Below, piece by piece: positions 49,967 through 60,101 of a DNA stretch of 64,000 nucleotides. A program made the translations under genes and the position numbers. The notes under the pieces were generated by a model. That model did no database searches and was not told where the DNA came from. It worked only from the letters and a program-made list of their open reading frames with translations. The stretch spans positions 1 to 64,000 of the forward strand of contig CADEDY010000012.1 in the NCBI GenBank assembly GCA_902826215.1, read 5' to 3'. How positions within the stretch are numbered: the first letter of the stretch is position 1; every line of letters begins with the position of its first letter. This DNA comes from an uncultured Bacteroidota bacterium (GTDB lineage Bacteria > Bacteroidota > Bacteroidia > Flavobacteriales_F > PHOS-HE28).

Positions 49967-51157
49967 ATGTACGGCATTTTCCAACAGCTTCTGAAGAACG
50001 AGATCTCCTCCATTCAAGAGGCCGGGCTCTTCAAACGCGAACGTGTCATCACCAGTGAGCAAGGGGCGGAGATCACCGTGAATGGTCGGAAGGTCTTGAA
50101 TTTCTGCGCCAACAATTACCTCGGTCTGTCTTCGCATCCCGAGGTGACGAAAGCGGCCCATGATGCCTTGGATTCGCATGGCTTCGGCATGAGCAGCGTT
50201 CGGTTCATCTGTGGGACACAGGACATCCACAAGGAACTGGAAGCCAAATTGTCCGCGTTCCATTCCGTCGACGACACGATCCTCTATGCGGCGTGCTTTG
50301 ATGCGAACGGAGGTGTTTTCGAACCGTTGCTCTCTGAACTGGACGCCATCGTCAGCGATTCACTCAACCACGCCAGTATCATCGATGGGGTGCGGTTATG
50401 CAAGGCGATGCGGTACCGCTATGCCAACAACGACATGGCCGATCTGGAGGTGCAGTTGAAGAGTGCGAAGAAGGATGGCGCACGCCATATCCTGATCGTG
50501 ACCGATGGTGTCTTCAGTATGGATGGTATCGTTGCCGATCTCAAGGGCGTGTGCGATCTCGCCGACAAATACGAGGCACTCGTCATGGTGGATGAATGTC
50601 ACGCTGCCGGTTTCATCGGGAAGACCGGTCGTGGAAGCGTTGAACATTGCGGAGTGACCGGTCGTGTCGACATCATCACCGGTACCCTGGGCAAGGCCCT
50701 CGGCGGTGCCATGGGTGGTTATACGAGTGCTCGAAAGGAGATCGTGGAACTGCTCAGGCAGCGGTCGCGCCCGTATTTGTTCAGCAATTCGCTTGCGCCA
50801 TCCATTGTCGGTGCTTCCATCAAGGTGATCGACCTGCTGAGTGCGTCAACAACGCTTCGCGATCGATTGGAGAAGAACGTGGATCGTTTCCGCAGCGGGA
50901 TCGAAGCGCTCGGATTCAAGACGCGTGGCGCAGGGGCGGCCATCGTCCCCGTGATGCTCGGCGATGCCAAATTGAGCCAATTGATGGCCGACGCCCTGTT
51001 GGATGAAGGCATTTACGTGATCGGATTCTTCTATCCCGTTGTGCCGAAGGATACAGCGCGCATCCGCGTTCAACTCAGCGCAGCACACACCGACGAACAC
51101 ATCGACCGGGCCCTGGCTGCCTTTGCCAAGGTCGGGAAGGACCTTGGCGTGATCTAA
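49967..51157 (+). CDS. kbl: Glycine C-acetyltransferase
   Basis: 396 residues, fold-type I PLP enzyme. It joins glycine and acetyl-CoA to 2-amino-3-ketobutyrate in threonine breakdown. Motifs: [71 protein letters not shown] and PLP Lys in [22 protein letters not shown] 49967 fits the family; the open frame begins at 49865. Confidence 0.94.
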
Positions 51158-51264
51158 CGCTTCGGACCCTTCTACACCGATAGGATCCATCCATGTGCGG
51201 CTCCGCACAAGGGTATCTTTTGCCGTTCCTCCAGAAGCCAAGAAGCTGTTCTTGAGCTGTCGTA

Positions 51265-51272
51265 TATCTTTC
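51265..51272 (+). promoter_or_regulatory. Candidate -7 element of the six-gene operon
   Basis: TATCTTTC, 40 bases before ATG 51313. A second similar site TATCTTTTG occurs at 51214. Confidence 0.4.
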
Positions 51273-51312
51273 GCACTGGCGCATACCAGTGCCGTTGATA
51301 ACAACCTGAACC

Positions 51313-52683
51313 ATGGCAGACAGTTTCGACCTATTGGATGAGCTCGGCGACGAGAAGAAGGTGAGCGAGTTGAAAGCACGCATTCAAAAAAAGAAGGCGA
51401 GCGACGTGATCTCGAAGTTGGACAGCATCGAGAGCGAGATCGAAAGTGCCGCCTCGAACAACAAGAGTTCGGAGGACATCGTTTCGGGCATCATCAATGC
51501 CAAGTTCGAAAGCCTGAACGGTGATGTGGAAAGTACGGAGAAGGACCTGCAGGAGCTGATGCTGCACCTGCGCGCCATGCTCGATAGCTGCGGAGGTGAA
51601 TTCGCCAACCTGCAAGAGCTCAACAAGAGCGAGTTGAACATGGTGGCCAGTGCGAAGAGCAAACTGGAGGGTGCAGGGCGCGACCTGGCCGATGCCAACG
51701 GCATGAGCAATGCGTGGAACATCCTCTTCGGCTATAAGAACAGCAAAGTGAACCGCCTGACCAATGAATTGGCAGCCGCTGAACAAGGTGTCAAGAAAGC
51801 GGAACAGGACGCGAACCGCTTGTATCGTGAACGCTTGAAGAACGCGGACATCGGCGAATCGCTGAACCGGATCATCAGTCAAGTGCAAGGTCTGAGCGGA
51901 GTGGTGGAGGAGATGATCCTGGAGGTGGAGAAGCAGATCGATGCGCTTAAGAACCGGAAGGAACTGGCTTTCGAGACCAAGGAGAAAGCTGCCAAGGTGA
52001 TGGAGAGCCGCAAGGCCGAGCTCGAGAACCTGGAGGCGCTGATGAAGATGGAGGAGAAGTCGCTGGAAGAGTTGGCGAACAACAGCCCGGAATACACCGA
52101 GCAACAGAAGAAGATCGCCGACATGCGCGAGCGCCGTGCCGAGGTGAAGGGGAAGTTCAACATTGCACTGGGCATCTTCCAGAGCAAGGAGCGTTTCGTG
52201 GACCAGATCGTGATCCACTTGGAGGCACAGACCACGACGAAGAACAACCTGAAGCAGTTGATCGGACAGCTCAAGAGCGATACCGAAGAGCGCGTGACCA
52301 CCTACGAATCAGGCTTGCAACTGATCCGTTCCGCTACCGCGCAGGAAGCGGCTTCCATCTACGAAGAGGCCGGAGTGAAGACCGACCAGAAGATCACCGA
52401 GATCGCCGCCAAGGTGTTCGTGTCGAGTGAGCGGGATCGTATCGATCGGGTCAAGAAGCACCCCGAGCGGATGACCGAACTGCACAAAGTGCTCGTGGCC
52501 ATGGCCGAAGCAACCGCACAGTTCAAAGCCAAGGATGCGGAGATCCTGAAGGCGCACAGCAATAAGTTCGGGATCGATGTGAGCGAGACCTTCAGCAGCA
52601 ACCACGAAGGCAAAGGCAGTGCCCCTGGTCAGCCAGCACCCGCGAAGAAGGAAGGGGATGTCAATGATCTGTTGGGTGGGTAG
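51313..52683 (+). CDS. Coiled-coil protein, first gene of six-gene operon
   Basis: 456 residues, soluble, strongly helical and coiled-coil over residues about 15-100, 140-260 and 310-420 (ELKARIQKKKASDVISKLDSI; MKMEEKSLEELANN; EQQKKIADMRERRAEVKGKF). No signal or TM. The pattern of long helices with RERRAEVKGKFNIALGIFQ and EAQTTTKNNLKQLIGQL recalls the TelA toxic-anion-resistance family, but identity is not established. The C-terminus is a Pro/Gly/Lys-rich flexible tail ending GDVNDLLGG. It may be the scaffold or substrate adaptor for the AAA+ ATPase downstream (inference). Confidence 0.85.
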   Translation: MADSFDLLDELGDEKKVSELKARIQKKKASDVISKLDSIESEIESAASNNKSSEDIVSGIINAKFESLNGDVESTEKDLQELMLHLRAMLDSCGGEFANLQELNKSELNMVASAKSKLEGAGRDLADANGMSNAWNILFGYKNSKVNRLTNELAAAEQGVKKAEQDANRLYRERLKNADIGESLNRIISQVQGLSGVVEEMILEVEKQIDALKNRKELAFETKEKAAKVMESRKAELENLEALMKMEEKSLEELANNSPEYTEQQKKIADMRERRAEVKGKFNIALGIFQSKERFVDQIVIHLEAQTTTKNNLKQLIGQLKSDTEERVTTYESGLQLIRSATAQEAASIYEEAGVKTDQKITEIAAKVFVSSERDRIDRVKKHPERMTELHKVLVAMAEATAQFKAKDAEILKAHSNKFGIDVSETFSSNHEGKGSAPGQPAPAKKEGDVNDLLGG

Positions 52684-52784
52684 TTCGTAGGAATGTATGG
52701 GTCCGGTGCCGCCTGAAACGCGGAACTGAGGTCCAAGTCCCTATCAACACCAACGACGAACAAGCAGTATCGAGTTCCATTCCC

Positions 52785-53897
52785 ATGAAGACCATCGACA
52801 TCGAGAGCCACTTCACGGACCTCGATCGTTACATCCTTGAGAACAATGTGGAGTACGAGCGGTACTTCAAGTTCGTGACCCATATTCTCGATGCTTTCAC
52901 TACAACGTTCGCGCCTAAAGAGGGCGTACAAGAACACGAGGTGACCATCGTGCGTGACCTATCTGCTCGCTTCCTACTTACGTTGCGTGCCTTGGGGTTG
53001 AAGTACCTCTTCGAGGAAACGGATCGCATGCGGATCGATCTCACGGCAAGTGGATTCCCGAACCACTTGGAGCTCCGCAAGATGGCCGCCGACCTTGGCC
53101 GCTTGAAGGAAGGAGGCCTGAACTTGGTGAATCAGGAAACGCTCAAAAGGCAACTGCTCGATAAGCTCATCGACGGCGACAGTGAACCCACATCGATCCT
53201 GCAGAAACTCGCGATCTCGCAATACTTCAGTACCATCGAACAAGGTGGCCTCTTCGGTGAATTCGTGCCGGGCAACCTGCGTGAATTGAAAGTATTCGAT
53301 GCAACGAAACACAAGAAACGGTTCCTCTGCTCCTGGGCTTCGTTCGACACTGTGACGAACCGCCCATACGTATATCTGATGGTCTTCGATAACGACCCCG
53401 ACCCGCGCGGCCCAAGGACGGAGCGTGTCGACTTCGATCCGCTGTTCGTGGACGTCATCAAGAAGTGTACGCACAACACGGCACCGCTCAAGGTCATTGC
53501 CTCCGACATCGATGAAGCCTATGCGTGGGTGCATCCCAAAGTGCTGAAGCGCATCGACGTCGGACCGATCCTGGGTGAATACGACCAGACCGAGGATGAA
53601 CGCGCAAAGGAGATCGGAAAGCACATTCCTTCAGGTCACTTCGTGATGCATGTGACCACGGAGATCGTGTTCTCAGTTGGTCAAGAGAAGAAGAGCACCG
53701 GCTTGCTGTCAAAGACCGAATTACGCGAGGTCTTCCATGTGGATGAGACCAACAAGGATTGCATGGAACGTATGGTGAGCGAAGTGCAGAACTACCTCTT
53801 CACCACCCACACCGTGATGCAATACCTCAGCGATAATCAGAAGGGAATGCTCAAGGAGCTGAGCGCGCCACCATTCATCTGTACACCTGTTGCCTGA
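52785..53897 (+). CDS. Unrecognised protein, second gene of six-gene operon
   Basis: 370 residues, no TM or signal. A helical N-terminal half is followed by alpha/beta parts (RFLCSWASFDTVTNRPYVYLMVFDND; AYAWVHPKVLKRIDVG). Not recognised. 101 bases after the coiled-coil gene and one base before the AAA+ gene (TGA T ATG), so it is co-translated with the ATPase. Confidence 0.85.
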   Translation: MKTIDIESHFTDLDRYILENNVEYERYFKFVTHILDAFTTTFAPKEGVQEHEVTIVRDLSARFLLTLRALGLKYLFEETDRMRIDLTASGFPNHLELRKMAADLGRLKEGGLNLVNQETLKRQLLDKLIDGDSEPTSILQKLAISQYFSTIEQGGLFGEFVPGNLRELKVFDATKHKKRFLCSWASFDTVTNRPYVYLMVFDNDPDPRGPRTERVDFDPLFVDVIKKCTHNTAPLKVIASDIDEAYAWVHPKVLKRIDVGPILGEYDQTEDERAKEIGKHIPSGHFVMHVTTEIVFSVGQEKKSTGLLSKTELREVFHVDETNKDCMERMVSEVQNYLFTTHTVMQYLSDNQKGMLKELSAPPFICTPVA

Positions 53898-53898
53898 T

Positions 53899-55872
53899 AT
53901 GGAAAAGAGCGGAGCATCACAGATCCCCGTCACCGAGGAGCAATTGAACGCCTACAAGGAGGAGATCACCGCCTTGCTGAAGATGGTGAGCTGGTCCCCG
54001 GATCAACGCAGCAGACCCTCCAGCAATACACAGCTGGATGCCAGTTTCCTGCTACATGTGGGCAAGGCCCTGAACGTGGGCGAGACCGATGAGCTTTCCG
54101 TGTTGAAGAGCGCCGTGCGAATCAGCGACGATCGCACCATCCTGACCAACACCACCAACGTCGTGCTCAATGCGATCCGCAAGGGATTCTGCATGGGCAA
54201 GCATTTGAGTGTGTTGTTCGAGCGGAGCAGTGGTTTGGAATTGTTGCAACAGAAGAACAACGATGGCAGCCTGCACCAGAGCGAGATGCCCGCGTTCCAC
54301 GACAAGCTTCAAACCTCATCGTCGATCGTGCTGTTCGTTGCATCGTACTACATCACGCACGCCCTCAACAACGTTCGATCGGATGAGCACTCGTCGATCA
54401 ACATCGATTTCGGAGGCGTACCGGAGGTGAAGCTGAGCCGTCCGAGCCAAGCAGTTCAATGCGCCATATACTACTACGCAGCCTATCTGGAGCGCAGTGG
54501 TGTGGTGAAGTCCGATCTCGAGTTGTTGAAGATCACCTTGCTCTACTTCGAGCGGTTGATGGAGGAGATCCTCATGCGCAAAGGCTCCCTGAAGGACGCG
54601 GAATTCTTCACCGCGCAGAATTACAAGTTGGAGCATTCGGACTTCACGGTGCAGGGCTTCGAGGTGGCCTACAATGCCCAGGTGAAAGGCGTTGAGTTCA
54701 ATGCCACGCGCATGGAGGATATCGTGGCCAACGAACAGGCCAAGCACATGTTCCGGCGCTTCGCGGAACGGTTGCTCTGTTACGACCTGAACGAGCAGAA
54801 GAACCCGATGTTGGTGCTCGGTGGCATGCCCAGCATCACCATGGCCGACGGTAAGCCCGGTACCGGAAAGAGCATGCTCATTGCGGCGGTGGCCACGATG
54901 CTGCAAGAGCGTTGTGAGGTGTTGAAGTTACCCTTCCTGTTCTGGCCTCTGCCAGAGAACATCATCTCCACCTTCCAGGGCGGTTCAGCCGAACGCGCGA
55001 TCGAATGGTTCCGCCCGATGCAGGACACCGGCAAGATCGTCTTCGCACCGATCGACGATGCCGAGAACAACCTCGAGGAACGCACCCGGCAAGGCGTGTC
55101 GGCTGGCGTGCGCGAGTTCATCGGGGTATTCCTGCGCAATACCGAAGGGGCCTATGCGGTGAACCACGGCAACCGCATGATCAGCTTGTTCACCAACATC
55201 CCGGACCAGATCGACAAGGCCGTGCTCTCACGCATCCAGGTTCGCGTGAGCATGGAAGGCGCCAAGCGCTTCGAGGATTTCGTGGACCAGGACCACCTGT
55301 GGTGGAAGAAATACCGCGAGCTCGATCCGAAATTCATCAAGGACCCGGGGGTGAAGGACTACGAGTTCATGAGCGCACAGCGGCAGGTCGCGTCCATGAG
55401 CGATCTGCACAAAGGCGGAAGTACCGAGGTCCAGAACGCGGATCTACGGACGATCTACGAAGCCAGCCTCAAGCAACACGATGCAGGCACGCACGAGTTC
55501 TTCGGTGTGTTCTACACCGCTGTTCTTGAACGGTTCCCCTTCTTTAGTTCGCGTGATCTGCGGAACATCCAGAAGGCCGTGGATGCGCGTGTGACTGACT
55601 TCGACCTGCCCACGATCTGGTGGGACAAGCCCGACGAGTTCTTCTTCAAGGACTATGATACCAAGCTCGCCATGCTGAAGGAGTTGATGCGCTCCAACCT
55701 AGGCCATATCAGCTTCGAAGAAGTGCGCTTGCAGGAGGCGCTGAACTACCTCGACAATGCGATCAGGATCAACGAGACAGGCATAGACCGGCAGGTGGAA
55801 CGCCGGGCCGAAGAGATCTATATCCAGCAAAAGGCGATGGAGTTGCAGGCCAAGAAGAACGCCAGGACGTAA
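53899..55872 (+). CDS. AAA+ ATPase, third gene of six-gene operon
   Basis: 657 residues. The first 290 residues are a helical, unrecognised domain. Then an AAA+ core: Walker A in ADGKPGTGKSMLIAAVA (Gly318-Ser325), Walker B region KIVFAPIDDAENN (Asp386-Asp387, instead of the usual DE), and a probable Arg finger in LSRIQVRV (Arg445 or Arg448). The C-terminal 150 residues are helical. It likely remodels a protein partner, perhaps the coiled-coil protein (inference). Start ATG 53899; TTG 53890 also in frame. Confidence 0.92.
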   Translation: MEKSGASQIPVTEEQLNAYKEEITALLKMVSWSPDQRSRPSSNTQLDASFLLHVGKALNVGETDELSVLKSAVRISDDRTILTNTTNVVLNAIRKGFCMGKHLSVLFERSSGLELLQQKNNDGSLHQSEMPAFHDKLQTSSSIVLFVASYYITHALNNVRSDEHSSINIDFGGVPEVKLSRPSQAVQCAIYYYAAYLERSGVVKSDLELLKITLLYFERLMEEILMRKGSLKDAEFFTAQNYKLEHSDFTVQGFEVAYNAQVKGVEFNATRMEDIVANEQAKHMFRRFAERLLCYDLNEQKNPMLVLGGMPSITMADGKPGTGKSMLIAAVATMLQERCEVLKLPFLFWPLPENIISTFQGGSAERAIEWFRPMQDTGKIVFAPIDDAENNLEERTRQGVSAGVREFIGVFLRNTEGAYAVNHGNRMISLFTNIPDQIDKAVLSRIQVRVSMEGAKRFEDFVDQDHLWWKKYRELDPKFIKDPGVKDYEFMSAQRQVASMSDLHKGGSTEVQNADLRTIYEASLKQHDAGTHEFFGVFYTAVLERFPFFSSRDLRNIQKAVDARVTDFDLPTIWWDKPDEFFFKDYDTKLAMLKELMRSNLGHISFEEVRLQEALNYLDNAIRINETGIDRQVERRAEEIYIQQKAMELQAKKNART

Positions 55873-57143
55873 TGTTGAAGCTGATCCAGAGCGGCCTCTT
55901 CGGTGGACAATTGTTCCACGTTTCCACCAAGGAATTGGTGGAGCGCTACAATGCTTGTTTGGATGATATCGGTCTGGAGCGCACGCAACTGAAGGACTTC
56001 CACATCGATGGATGGGGGTGGAGCCCGGAGATCGCCGAGGAGCGGCAGGACAAGCAGTACCTCTCGCACGGCAGCGCCAATCCGTATTCGATCATCATTA
56101 CGCCGGAGCAGCAGCAGGGTTCGCTGTACTACCCCTACCATTCGTTCGACTGGGATATCCATCATCAGGTGTTCGAGAAGTACGCGAAGCAGATCGCCGA
56201 CATCACCACGGATTGCGGATTGTGGCTCGCACTCGATCAGGATATCAGCGCTTACCGGTCACCGCAGGATCTGCTGATGATCGATGTCGTGAAGGTGCAA
56301 TTCAAGACCACCAGGAACCTGATCACCGCGGCCCGGGAACAACGGGAGCTTGTTCGCACCTACTTCGACAAACCCATGGCTTGGGCGGATCGTGAACTGC
56401 GGCAGAAGATCAGCGCAAGCGGCAAGGAACATGGCGACCTCCGGTTCCGAAACCTGGACGTGTTGCCCTTTCCGTTCACGGACATTCGTGCGTTCTACAC
56501 CACGGCTTTCGATGGTCTTTATGTGCTTCGAGACACGGTCATCGGTAAGCCGGTGTTGATCCTGCAGAACAACAGCTCTTCTGTTTCCGGTGAATTGCAA
56601 CATGCCCACGTGGAGTTCAACCTGAACGATCCCGCGCTGGTGGGATACTTGTTCAGCAATGGCCTTGTGGAACATTCCTATGCGCACTTCAAGGAGGTTC
56701 CGGTCCTGCTCGTGCATCAGATCGACCTGATACTCGCGAACGCCAGCTTGAAGTTGGATGCGCCGGTGGAATTGATCGGCCTGACAGAGAGCAAGCGGAA
56801 GGGCTTGATCAACACCTTGCAGACGAAAGGGCTGTTGGGTGATGACTATTTCCAGTTGGAGGAAGTGCGCCGGTCATTGCTTAGGAACGAAAAGGTGCAA
56901 CCCGAGGGCGAAGCACTGATCCGCGACCATTTGATCCATCCGGTCAAGGACCAGAACGTGCAGGTGCGCACCATCATTTGGCAGCTGATCGCGAACATCT
57001 TCGGCGTGAATGAACTGGTGCGCTATACCTTCAACAAGCCCGATTTCTATCACCGCTACAAAGGCTGGCCTGAACAGTACCAGCGCTGGGTGATCAAGGA
57101 GTTGCAGGAACATCACGGTATCTTCGGGAAACTCACCGCGTAG
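55872..57143 (+). CDS. Unrecognised protein, fourth gene of six-gene operon (DUF6638-like?)
   Basis: 423 residues, no TM. The ATG shares a base with the ATPase stop (TAATG), so it is translationally coupled. Segments: LKDFHIDGWGWSPEIAEE, YLSHGSANPYSIII, LYYPYHSFDWDIHHQ and GDLRFRNLDVLPFPFTDIRAFYTTAFDG. It reminds me of the DUF6638 group, unverified. No catalytic motif recognised. Confidence 0.85.
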   Translation: MLKLIQSGLFGGQLFHVSTKELVERYNACLDDIGLERTQLKDFHIDGWGWSPEIAEERQDKQYLSHGSANPYSIIITPEQQQGSLYYPYHSFDWDIHHQVFEKYAKQIADITTDCGLWLALDQDISAYRSPQDLLMIDVVKVQFKTTRNLITAAREQRELVRTYFDKPMAWADRELRQKISASGKEHGDLRFRNLDVLPFPFTDIRAFYTTAFDGLYVLRDTVIGKPVLILQNNSSSVSGELQHAHVEFNLNDPALVGYLFSNGLVEHSYAHFKEVPVLLVHQIDLILANASLKLDAPVELIGLTESKRKGLINTLQTKGLLGDDYFQLEEVRRSLLRNEKVQPEGEALIRDHLIHPVKDQNVQVRTIIWQLIANIFGVNELVRYTFNKPDFYHRYKGWPEQYQRWVIKELQEHHGIFGKLTA

Positions 57144-57146
57144 ATC

Positions 57147-57656
57147 ATGGACAGCTTGCTCACCCTCGCACTCGCCTTCATTGCCGGCATCGTGTTCTAC
57201 TATCTGGACCTCGGTCGCGGCCGTCGGTGGAATACCCGCTGGTACGACCTCACTCACCAGCACAAGAGCCCGGTGCTCCTGGACAAGGGCCTGATCCACT
57301 TGCAGCCATTCCAGCAGAAATTGGTGATGGCCATCATCGTCGCTGGACTGTTCACTGCAGCAGCCATTGCGCTCGGTGGTGATCATGCCCTGCTGGACCT
57401 CATCACAGGGGCCGTTGCGGTAGTTGGACTCTTGCTCGGTTTCTACGCTTCGGTGTTCCTCTTCAAAGGCAGGCAATTGAACATGGACCCTGTGCGCAAA
57501 GCCATGAACAAGGTGGATGATCTGGAGAAGAAGGTCCACGACATCGGGACCGTTCCGACGGAGCGGATCGTACCTCTCGCCGAGCCTGAGAAACCCGCTG
57601 CCAAGGAGGAGAAGCCCGATTGGCGCGAGGGCATCAAGAAGTTCACGGATAAGTAA
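57147..57656 (+). CDS. Membrane protein, fifth gene of six-gene operon
   Basis: 169 residues: helices at about 3-20 (LLTLALAFIAGIVFYYL), about 58-78 (KLVMAIIVAGLFTAAAIAL) and about 85-105 (LITGAVAVVGLLLGFYASVFLF), then a charged tail (PLAEPEKPAAKEEKPDWREG). Starts 4 bases after the previous stop. Not recognised. Confidence 0.8.
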   Translation: MDSLLTLALAFIAGIVFYYLDLGRGRRWNTRWYDLTHQHKSPVLLDKGLIHLQPFQQKLVMAIIVAGLFTAAAIALGGDHALLDLITGAVAVVGLLLGFYASVFLFKGRQLNMDPVRKAMNKVDDLEKKVHDIGTVPTERIVPLAEPEKPAAKEEKPDWREGIKKFTDK

Positions 57657-57673
57657 CGGTACTGGCCAACACG

Positions 57674-59278
57674 ATGCCGACTCCTGTTGAACAGCTTGAC
57701 GACAAAGGCCAGCTCTATTGGTTGCAGCACAACCTGCGTGCAGGCGCTTCCCGTCGCATCCGCGCTTGGGTGAAACAGAAACCCGTGATGGCCGTGATCA
57801 CTTTTCTGGTCGCGGCCTATCTCCTCTTCGTGCTACGGAGTGTTTATCAGCCGATGGTCCTCGGCATCCGCAAGTATTTCTTCTGGATCCTCGTGCTGCT
57901 CTTCTTGATGTGGATCGTGCGCAAGGTCTTCCGTCGCTCGCAGGCGTGGAAGAAGGTGATGGGATCGCTCGTCAGCCTGTTGCTCCTGATCGCCATTGCA
58001 TGGATCACACCCCGCCTGGTCCATTATGGTTCGCAGTACGTGTACTACAATGCGTTGAACAAGGTGCAAGTGGACCAGCTGCCGGTGACCGGGCAGGAGC
58101 GCATACAGCCCATCAGCTCCATTCACACCCTAACGGATCAAGAAGCGCTTTCGGAAACGGAGGACGCGACCATGCCCCGTTTCGTGCGGACCAATGAGGG
58201 GGACTACGAATACACCACGGCGATCGGGCCTTCACAGGCGTACAAAGTGCAACAGTTCACCAAGGACATGTACGAGGTGATCCACATTCCGGGTCAGCTT
58301 CCATCGCCGAATTTCTCCTCCGGTTATCGCGACAAGGTCGATTTCGAGGTCGGGGAGTTCCTGCTCTTCAGCAAGAACACCCACACCGCTGTGGTGAAGC
58401 GTTTCGATCCATGGCAGTATTGCTCCATGGAGCCTTCCGATCCGGTCTACCTTCAGAATGAACAAGGTGAATGGGTGCAGGTCGTTGGTTTGATCAAGTG
58501 GGTCGGATTCGTTTTCCCGCGTCCCGTTTTCGGTGGGGTCATGGTGATCGAACAGCACAAGCCGTCCGACATCTATGCCAAGCGGTTGTTCTTCGGAAAG
58601 GGCACCTTCATTCCGGCAGAGCAGCTCGTCGATCATCCTTTCCTGCAAGGTCAGGATGTTATGCCCCGAGAGGTGACGCGCTACATCGCCGAAAGCTTTC
58701 GTTTTCGCCGTGGCTTCCTGGCACCAATGCCCGGTTACCACGAAGGGGATATCCGCGTGCCCCAACTACCCGAAGGCCAGGATCCGCAACCCTTCGTGGT
58801 CCATTCGGAATTGAAGGGTGCTGCTGGCAAGCTCTACAACTACTTTGGATTGGAGCCTTACGAAGAAGCAAAGAAGGGGCTGAGTGTGAGCCTGTTCATT
58901 CCCGGAGATGGCATGAAGGAGGTCTATTTCATCGACCACACCACCAGCGGTGCCGCCTTCCTTGGCAGCAGTGCCGTGAGTGCCAAGATCATAGAGAGCC
59001 GTAAAGAGTATGATTGGACGCACAGCTATCCAGCGGAAACCCGGCCTTTCATCCGTGAGATCGGAGGTCGCGTGCGTTTGTTCTGGCTGAGCACCATCGT
59101 TACCCGTGCTGGCGATGGCCACGGTCGATTCATCGGTGGCAGTGTGCCGGAGATCACGATCACCGATGCAGTGCACGGCAAGGTGACCTGGATCCCGACC
59201 GACCTCGTGGGTTCGCCCGAGAAGTGGATGGACGTGGTGGTCGAGGTGATGCAGCCTTTTTGGGATCACGAGCGATAG
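57674..59278 (+). CDS. Membrane-anchored protein, sixth gene of six-gene operon
   Basis: 534 residues. Three TM helices at about 38-55, 65-85 and 95-115 (VMAVITFLVAAYLLFVL; YFFWILVLLFLMWIVRKV; VSLLLLIAIAWITPRLV), then a large domain of about 410 residues with no family I know. It contains Trp/Tyr-rich strands (SLFIPGDGMKEVYFIDHTTSGAAFLG; ITITDAVHGKVTWIPTDLVG). Topology not certain. It is 17 bases after the small membrane protein, the last gene of the operon. Confidence 0.8.
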   Translation: MPTPVEQLDDKGQLYWLQHNLRAGASRRIRAWVKQKPVMAVITFLVAAYLLFVLRSVYQPMVLGIRKYFFWILVLLFLMWIVRKVFRRSQAWKKVMGSLVSLLLLIAIAWITPRLVHYGSQYVYYNALNKVQVDQLPVTGQERIQPISSIHTLTDQEALSETEDATMPRFVRTNEGDYEYTTAIGPSQAYKVQQFTKDMYEVIHIPGQLPSPNFSSGYRDKVDFEVGEFLLFSKNTHTAVVKRFDPWQYCSMEPSDPVYLQNEQGEWVQVVGLIKWVGFVFPRPVFGGVMVIEQHKPSDIYAKRLFFGKGTFIPAEQLVDHPFLQGQDVMPREVTRYIAESFRFRRGFLAPMPGYHEGDIRVPQLPEGQDPQPFVVHSELKGAAGKLYNYFGLEPYEEAKKGLSVSLFIPGDGMKEVYFIDHTTSGAAFLGSSAVSAKIIESRKEYDWTHSYPAETRPFIREIGGRVRLFWLSTIVTRAGDGHGRFIGGSVPEITITDAVHGKVTWIPTDLVGSPEKWMDVVVEVMQPFWDHER

Positions 59279-59439
59279 TTACAACGGCCCATTGCGGCAT
59301 CTGGGAGCTGGCATCTTGGTAAGCTCGATGAAGTGAGGCTTCGCAACGGCGTTCCGTTCCCAATTATCATTTCTTTTTCATCTCTCAGGAGGAACTCGAC
59401 CCGGATCCCATCCGTTCCAAGGACCTGCCGAGAACCCGA

Positions 59440-60045
59440 ATGAAGCACCGACCCACTGTCCTGTTCGCACTCTGTTCAATTGTCGTGGGTAATTCACTGG
59501 CTCAGCAGAATGTCGGTGCGATCGCCGGTCTACAACGATCCGTTTGGCGGGCACCCGGGCATGTATTCAATGCTCGCGATCGGATGGAGCTGGGGTTCTT
59601 TTCTGCCATGCAACTGCATTCCAACTTGGCGCTTAGGAACGAATTGGCCATGGGCATCGGGGCTTCCACATCCCTGCACGTGGAACGAGTACGGTTCGCC
59701 TCACTGGTCAAGTACTACCCTCGCCCCAAATTCTATTTGCTCCTAGGTGTAGAAGTGTTGGTTCCACTGGGGACTGTTGATCCACAGGAGGTTGGCCCGG
59801 AATTGCCCCCACAACGGATGGATCTGGCCATCTTCACTGGTGCTGGAACGCGCTTTTCGGACCGCTCCGAAGTGGGCCTTCGTGCAGGCATTGGAATGTT
59901 GGTCAGCGAAGAAATGCCCGTATACGGCAAGGCCCGTGATCATACTCTTTCTATCGTTTATGGCTATTTGTTGAAGGGCAGGCTACCGGGCTTCACCAAG
60001 CGTAGGCAATGGAAACGGCAGGTCCGCAGCACTCCGCTCATCTAG
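59440..60045 (+). CDS. Small outer-membrane-like protein
   Basis: 201 residues with signal peptide ([20 protein letters not shown]) and alternating strands ending with aromatic residues ([57 protein letters not shown]). The pattern fits a small beta barrel of the PorT or outer-membrane-beta-barrel type. Its own unit; no clear terminator found. Confidence 0.6.
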
Positions 60046-60101
60046 CCCCGGTCCGCGAACGGCCCTGAGCGCGGCTTCCGAACGATACGCACACCGCGTT
60101 G

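What the first reader, a model, noticed from the sequence alone, without database searches (positions are those of the whole stretch)
51313..59278. Six-gene operon with an AAA+ ATPase, a coiled-coil protein and two membrane proteins
Six same-strand genes over 8 kb: a coiled-coil protein, an unrecognised protein, an AAA+ ATPase, another unrecognised protein, and two membrane proteins. From the second gene on, junctions are 1, -1, 3 and 17 bases, so the products are probably made together. Only the ATPase falls in a family I can name firmly. The layout suggests an ATP-driven machine with a cytosolic scaffold and a membrane platform. The function is unknown; protein remodelling, envelope maintenance, toxic-anion tolerance (if the first protein is TelA-like) or defence are all open. 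This is the best candidate here for an undescribed system.
Basis: partly seen in the sequence, partly recalled or inferred. Interest (0 to 1): 0.75.

Follow-up and report, generated by a model that had tools for sequence, protein, structure and literature searches.

The report
Undescribed six-gene AAA ATPase membrane system
Six neighbouring genes, found together in hundreds of bacteria, appear to encode an undescribed molecular machine: an ATP-burning ring protein, a coiled-coil partner, two helper proteins and a membrane anchor, whose job in the cell is still unknown.

Summary
The six genes are real, at the stated coordinates and with the stated junctions. They form a unit: all 72 Bacteroidota loci in which all six were found carry A-B-C-D-E-F in this order on one strand. 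In 149 Flavobacteriaceae genomes the same 48 hold B and C, and 47 of these hold F. A reduced A-B-C-D core occurs in Vibrio and Rhizobiaceae. C is a classic single-domain AAA ATPase with intact Walker A, pore loop and arginine fingers; its Walker-B glutamate is Asp in all 87 sequences. D is DUF6638 (PF20343). A, B, E and F match no family. Confident models of D (pLDDT 91) and F (pLDDT 81) match no solved fold. No paper on DUF6638/PF20343 was found. In the window's genus 0 of 34 sister genomes carry D, and sisters show the empty site between kbl and rplM, so here it is accessory. TelA is not supported. Defence is unlikely: stable housekeeping neighbourhoods, no phage copies, no PADLOC match. Best reading: C threads or disassembles coiled-coil A, with B and D as adaptors, tethered to the inner membrane by E and F. 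The ATPase engine is well supported; substrate and role are inference.

The parts
51313..52683 (+). Gene A: 456 aa coiled-coil protein. In Bacteroidota it carries a DLL-type short motif at both ends (N-terminal FDLLD/E; C-terminal (D/N)DLL(G/S/N) after a flexible linker).
   Evidence: homologues in 72 of 72 loci with enough upstream sequence; no Pfam family
52785..53897 (+). Gene B: 370 aa soluble protein, no known family. Invariant in the seven-sequence alignment: S89, F91, P92, W184, D188, P194, D243, P251, G260-P261.
   Evidence: present in exactly the 48 Flavobacteriaceae genomes that hold C
53899..55872 (+). Gene C: 657 aa classic AAA ATPase. About 300 aa N-terminal region of unknown fold, AAA domain about 300-455, C-terminal region. 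Walker A 318-325, pore loop 1 at 357-361 (S-T-F/Y-Q-G), Walker B I-D386-D387, sensor N433, R445 and R449.
   Evidence: PF00004 E 1.2e-9; nearest solved relatives VCP-like/CDC48, 26S Rpt and Vps4; motif table over 87 sequences
55872..57143 (+). Gene D: 423 aa DUF6638 protein (PF20343). Confident model (pLDDT 91.3, pTM 0.86) with no match to a solved or viral fold.
   Evidence: (E 1.5e-38)
57147..57656 (+). Gene E: 169 aa membrane protein, predicted three TM helices, then an acidic/proline-rich tail ending in a conserved tip (DWREGIKKFTDK here; KSARERLKDKGLM in Flavobacteriaceae).
   Evidence: charge pattern suggests a cytosolic tail
57674..59278 (+). Gene F: 534 aa membrane protein. Membrane-spanning N-terminal region (about 39-113), then about 400 aa beta-rich domain, predicted extracytoplasmic.
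   Evidence: model pLDDT 80.8, no PDB match at E<=0.001
51155..60090 (.). Accessory insertion of about 8.9 kb between kbl and rplM, holding the operon and the gene at 59440-60045. Five sister species have the empty site, with 113-183 bases between the two genes.

Best explanation
A conserved AAA ATPase remodelling system. C forms a ring (inferred from its family) that uses ATP to pull on a protein through its aromatic pore loop. The most likely client is its constant partner A, a coiled-coil protein that probably assembles into a scaffold or polymer. The DLL motifs at the two ends of A and the conserved tip of E's tail are proposed docking peptides. B and D, constant cytosolic companions, are proposed adaptors or regulators. 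E and F hold the assembly at the inner membrane, with F exposing a beta-rich domain to the periplasm that could report envelope state. Two rhizobial loci have an unrelated membrane protein (DUF2333) in that position and the Vibrio loci have none, so A-B-C-D is the engine and the membrane part is exchangeable. The proposed role is upkeep of the cell envelope or of membrane-bound complexes. Shown by computation: the gene unit, co-inheritance, ATPase motifs, membrane segments, lack of known relatives. Inferred: ring, threading, A as client, docking, envelope role.
For: Fixed order and strand in 72 of 72 complete loci. Matching phyletic sets: C in 48, B in the same 48 and F in 47 of those 48 of 149 Flavobacteriaceae genomes. 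In G833 F lies about 0.85 Mb from B-C on the same contig yet is kept. Distance matrices of all six proteins correlate within the larger clade at r 0.77-0.94, with 0 of 200 permutations reaching the value for each pair; shared species history contributes. The A-B-C-D core recurs in Vibrio, Sinorhizobium, Shinella and R. leguminosarum at 16-28% identity. Walker A, aromatic pore loop (F/Y359-Q-G) and both arginines invariant in 87 sequences. Membrane segments and charge pattern of E and F. Conserved terminal motifs in A and E. PspA/Snf7 operons with classical AAA ATPases in bacteria are read as ATP-dependent membrane remodelling (PMC11237479), an analogous layout.
Against: No direct evidence of any interaction, ring, client or phenotype. 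The catalytic Walker-B glutamate is Asp in all 87 sequences, so hydrolysis may be slow or C may act as a switch. E and F are absent from the Proteobacterial loci, so membrane work may not be the core function. The C-terminal DLL motif of A is absent in Proteobacteria. Most genomes lack the system, so it is not essential.
Confidence: 0.5

Rival explanations
1. A bacterial analogue of ESCRT-III/Vps4: A polymerises on the inner membrane and C takes the polymer apart, giving membrane scission or repair, with E and F as anchors.
For: Classic AAA with Vps4 and CDC48 relatives and an aromatic pore loop; coiled-coil partner; membrane genes in the operon. Ravi et al. (PMC11237479) describe PspA or Snf7 with AAA ATPases in bacteria.
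Against: A gives no listed PspA (PF04012) or Snf7 hit at E<=1 in 15 scans. C is no closer to Vps4 than to CDC48 or Rpt ATPases. The fold of A was not modelled.
Confidence: 0.1
2. A signalling or regulatory complex in which C is a slow ATP-dependent switch (Asp at the catalytic Walker-B position), passing a signal from F's periplasmic domain to B and D, one of which is an enzyme.
For: Asp387 in all 87 sequences; D and B hold many invariant polar residues; F has a conserved domain predicted outside the membrane.
Against: No DNA-binding, kinase or nucleotide-cyclase domain in the operon; the pore loop is kept, which a pure switch would not need; D's fold matches no known enzyme.
Confidence: 0.2
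3. An anti-phage or mobile-element defence system.
For: Sporadic presence: 0 of 34 sister genomes in the window's genus, with an empty site; AAA plus membrane proteins is a common defence layout (own knowledge).
Against: No PADLOC match for the six proteins beyond weak noise, only single-member weak hits among 40 D proteins; none in 50,697 phage records or IMG/VR; one copy per genome in a third of Flavobacteriaceae; recurrent housekeeping neighbours.
Confidence: 0.08
4. A TelA-type toxic-anion or tellurite tolerance locus.
Against: The TelA profile PF05816 finds no match anywhere in the window genome, G042 or five Proteobacterial records that hold A, while it detects its own family in control genomes; no listed TelA hit in 15 A scans.
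Confidence: 0.03

Closest known systems
PspA/Snf7 operons with classical AAA ATPases (Ravi et al. 2024, PMC11237479)
   Same: A coiled-coil protein next to a classical AAA ATPase and membrane proteins; bacterial; read as ATP-dependent membrane remodelling
   Different: A shows no PspA or Snf7 signal; C has one AAA domain, not two; B, D, E and F do not appear among the partners in the passages read; gene order differs
ESCRT-III/Vps4 and the archaeal Cdv system
   Same: Classic AAA with aromatic pore loop and paired arginines; coiled-coil putative client
   Different: No recognised MIT or Snf7 domain; Walker-B glutamate replaced; three extra partners and a domain predicted in the periplasm
CDC48/VCP-like and Rpt ATPases
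   Same: Best profile matches of C's AAA domain in the PDB
   Different: C has a single AAA domain, a different N-terminal region and a fixed operon with no protease
DUF6638 (PF20343)
   Same: D is a member, over the curated cut-off in the window and in related genomes
   Different: The family has no assigned function; this work gives it an operon, a partner set and a confident model
DUF2333 membrane proteins (PF10095)
   Same: Occupy the position after D in Sinorhizobium and Shinella, with a predicted N-terminal TM and an outer domain
   Different: No profile similarity to F

Membership tests
Classic AAA ATPases (PF00004 clade) | Walker A GxxGxGK[S/T] | tested here: met
   G-x-P-G-T-G-K-S/T invariant in 87 sequences
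Classic AAA ATPases (PF00004 clade) | Walker B hhhhDE with catalytic Glu | tested here: not met
   I-D386-D387: Asp at the Glu position in 87 of 87. C is therefore filed by its domain profile and other motifs, with this departure stated.
Classic AAA ATPases (PF00004 clade) | Second region of homology with paired arginine fingers; aromatic pore loop | tested here: met
   N433, R445, R449 and F/Y359-Q-G invariant; PF00004 over cut-off
DUF6638 (PF20343) | Profile match over curated cut-off | tested here: met
   133 bits against 27, residues 12-414
TelA (PF05816) | Profile match of A | tested here: not met
   No match in the whole genome; no listed hit in 15 A proteins at E<=1
ESCRT-III / PspA-Vipp1 | PspA_IM30 or Snf7 profile match of A | tested here: not met
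   Absent from the listed Pfam hits at E<=1 (one lowest-ranked family was not shown)
ESCRT-III / PspA-Vipp1 | Helical hairpin fold and membrane-bound polymer | not tested
Known anti-phage defence systems | PADLOC model match and defence-island or mobile context | tested here: not met
   housekeeping neighbours

The most novel reading that the evidence does not exclude
A previously undescribed class of bacterial AAA machine: a four-protein cytosolic core (A-B-C-D) shared by Bacteroidota and Proteobacteria that couples ATP use to remodelling of a coiled-coil polymer at the membrane, with two new folds (DUF6638 and F), working as a bacterial counterpart of ESCRT/Vps4 that is not derived from PspA.
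Probability: 0.15. Interest if true: 0.9.

Novelty: new variant of a known kind. Interest (0 to 1): 0.6.

Why it matters
An all-or-none gene set in about a third of Flavobacteriaceae, with a four-gene core reaching Vibrio and Rhizobiaceae, is a whole machine without a name. Two of its proteins have confident models unlike any solved structure. The ATPase makes it testable at once: mutants in Walker A and the pore loop, deletions in a culturable Winogradskyella, Polaribacter or Sinorhizobium, and pull-downs should reveal client and role. It would also give a function to DUF6638.

Tried and rejected
TelA: rejected by profile in whole genomes and in A-family members; no TelA sequence could be fetched for a profile-profile test (the one accession tried is not held). 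Defence: PADLOC, phage and viral-contig searches empty or noise. F and rhizobial DUF2333 as one family: rejected, probability 0.9%. Fold relatives of F and D: none in the PDB at E<=0.001, none for D among viral models; top rows for F, such as beta-propellers, have query TM-scores at or below about 0.2 and were not taken as homology. First genome-contig scan with D alone found nothing; an alignment of C was needed. Sequence searches of the PDB with B, D and F gave nothing significant. Coiled-coil artefact hits of A (SMC, spectrin, CENP-F) were disregarded. Papers: nothing for DUF6638 or PF20343; one irrelevant paper for DUF2333.

Full report
OBSERVATION. The six ORFs are present as described: A 51313-52683, B 52785-53897, C 53899-55872, D 55872-57143, E 57147-57656, F 57674-59278, with gaps of 101, 1, -1, 3 and 17 bases. 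Consensus scans found no promoter- or terminator-like sites above chance in the operon; Bacteroidota promoters differ from the sigma-70 consensus (own knowledge), so this says little.

FAMILIES. C is PF00004 (E 1.2e-9) and D is PF20343/DUF6638 (E 1.5e-38); A, B, E and F have no Pfam, NCBIfam, PADLOC or PHROG family. Profiles of B, D and F find no solved relative by sequence. The profile of C finds VCP-like/CDC48, Rpt and Vps4 ATPases, all through the AAA domain.

THE GENES STAY TOGETHER. G042, another family of the same class, has all six in order, with one extra 208 aa gene between B and C. Of these, 72 have all six genes, and all 72 have the same order and strand. Extra genes are tolerated inside: a NUDIX hydrolase between C and D in about 45 loci, a four-helix-bundle-like protein, a CheB/CheR-like gene (recognised from sequence), and in L092 a gene resembling a type III restriction subunit directly before C. 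Exceptions: L019 keeps B and C (contig edge upstream) but D-F do not follow; L039 ends before E because of a large insertion.

CO-OCCURRENCE. Of 149 Flavobacteriaceae genomes, 48 have C, exactly those 48 have B, and 47 of them have F; in the 48th, G891, C itself is only partly covered. C and B are single copy throughout. In G833 F is about 0.85 Mb away from B-C on the same contig and on the other strand, yet kept. Phylogenetic dependence makes formal odds meaningless, but the pattern is all-or-none. Pairwise distances of the six proteins correlate within the larger clade (r 0.77-0.94); shared species history is part of that.

CORE. In Vibrio vulnificus and V. parahaemolyticus, Sinorhizobium meliloti pSymB, Shinella and R. 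leguminosarum the order A-B-C-D is kept, in S. meliloti with an IS4 element and an endonuclease-like gene between C and D. E and F are missing. Sinorhizobium and Shinella have a DUF2333 membrane protein after D, unrelated to F. The minimal machine is therefore four cytosolic proteins, and the membrane part is lineage-specific.

ENGINE. Over 87 C sequences Walker A, pore loop 1 (S-x-F/Y-Q-G), the sensor Asn433 and Arg445/Arg449 are invariant, so C looks like an active, threading-type classic AAA ATPase. The catalytic Walker-B Glu is Asp387 in all of them. An Asp there could still support hydrolysis, perhaps slowly; this is an open question.

PARTNERS. A is a long helical, heptad-like protein with DLL-type motifs at both ends in Bacteroidota. 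E ends in a conserved tip after a flexible tail, predicted cytosolic. These look like docking peptides (inference). F has an N-terminal membrane region and a beta-rich domain predicted outside. F's model (pLDDT 80.8) and D's (pLDDT 91.3, pTM 0.86) have no solved relative at E<=0.001, and D has no viral relative.

GENOMIC SETTING. In the window's genus 0 of 34 sister genomes have D. In G001, G009, G016, G024 and G029 kbl and rplM are direct neighbours (113-183 bases apart), whereas the window has about 8.9 kb between them; other sisters carry other sequence there: G012 1.3 kb, G010 2.0 kb, G018 and G026 several kb. GC content matches the flanks (55.9% against 56.2-56.7%), so gain was not very recent, or the donor was similar; loss in all the sisters is the alternative. 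In Flavobacteriaceae the neighbours are recurrent chromosomal genes such as an ABC-F ATPase, pirin and formimidoylglutamase-like proteins (names from sequence recognition).

ALTERNATIVES. TelA fails its profile test in the window genome and in five Proteobacterial records that hold A. Defence lacks PADLOC, phage or viral support. The nearest described layout is PspA/Snf7 with classical AAA ATPases (PMC11237479), but A gives no listed PspA or Snf7 signal.

CONCLUSION. A conserved, unnamed AAA-driven system. Unit, engine and membrane part are supported by computation; client, docking and envelope role are inference. No statement here rests on an experiment.

Noticed in passing
window 51155-60090 and sister loci L115-L123: The interval between kbl and rplM is variable in this genus: empty in five sisters, 1.3, 2.0 and several kb of other sequence in others. 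It may be an integration hotspot.
   Followed up: partly
window 59440-60045: A 201 aa protein with no Pfam match, which looks like a signal-peptide-bearing outer-membrane beta-barrel, lies inside the same insertion but outside the conserved operon.
   Followed up: no
L011:9901-10488, L014:10388-10981 and about 43 other loci, between C and D: A NUDIX hydrolase sits inside the operon in about half of the loci. It may be functionally linked or just a tolerated insertion.
   Followed up: partly
L092:3-1916: A gene resembling a type III restriction subunit lies directly upstream of C, where B is expected; A and B were not found on this short contig.
   Followed up: partly
L019 (CATLPG010000082.1): The record is titled Saccharospirillaceae (Gammaproteobacteria), but its C is 62% identical to the window's, and genomes drawn from the class of this genome (G449) overlap those of the window's class. 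The record's name looks wrong.
   Followed up: partly
G833 (C1:1829928 and C1:2678102): B and C are together, but F is about 0.85 Mb away on the opposite strand and kept: a natural experiment for functional linkage.
   Followed up: no
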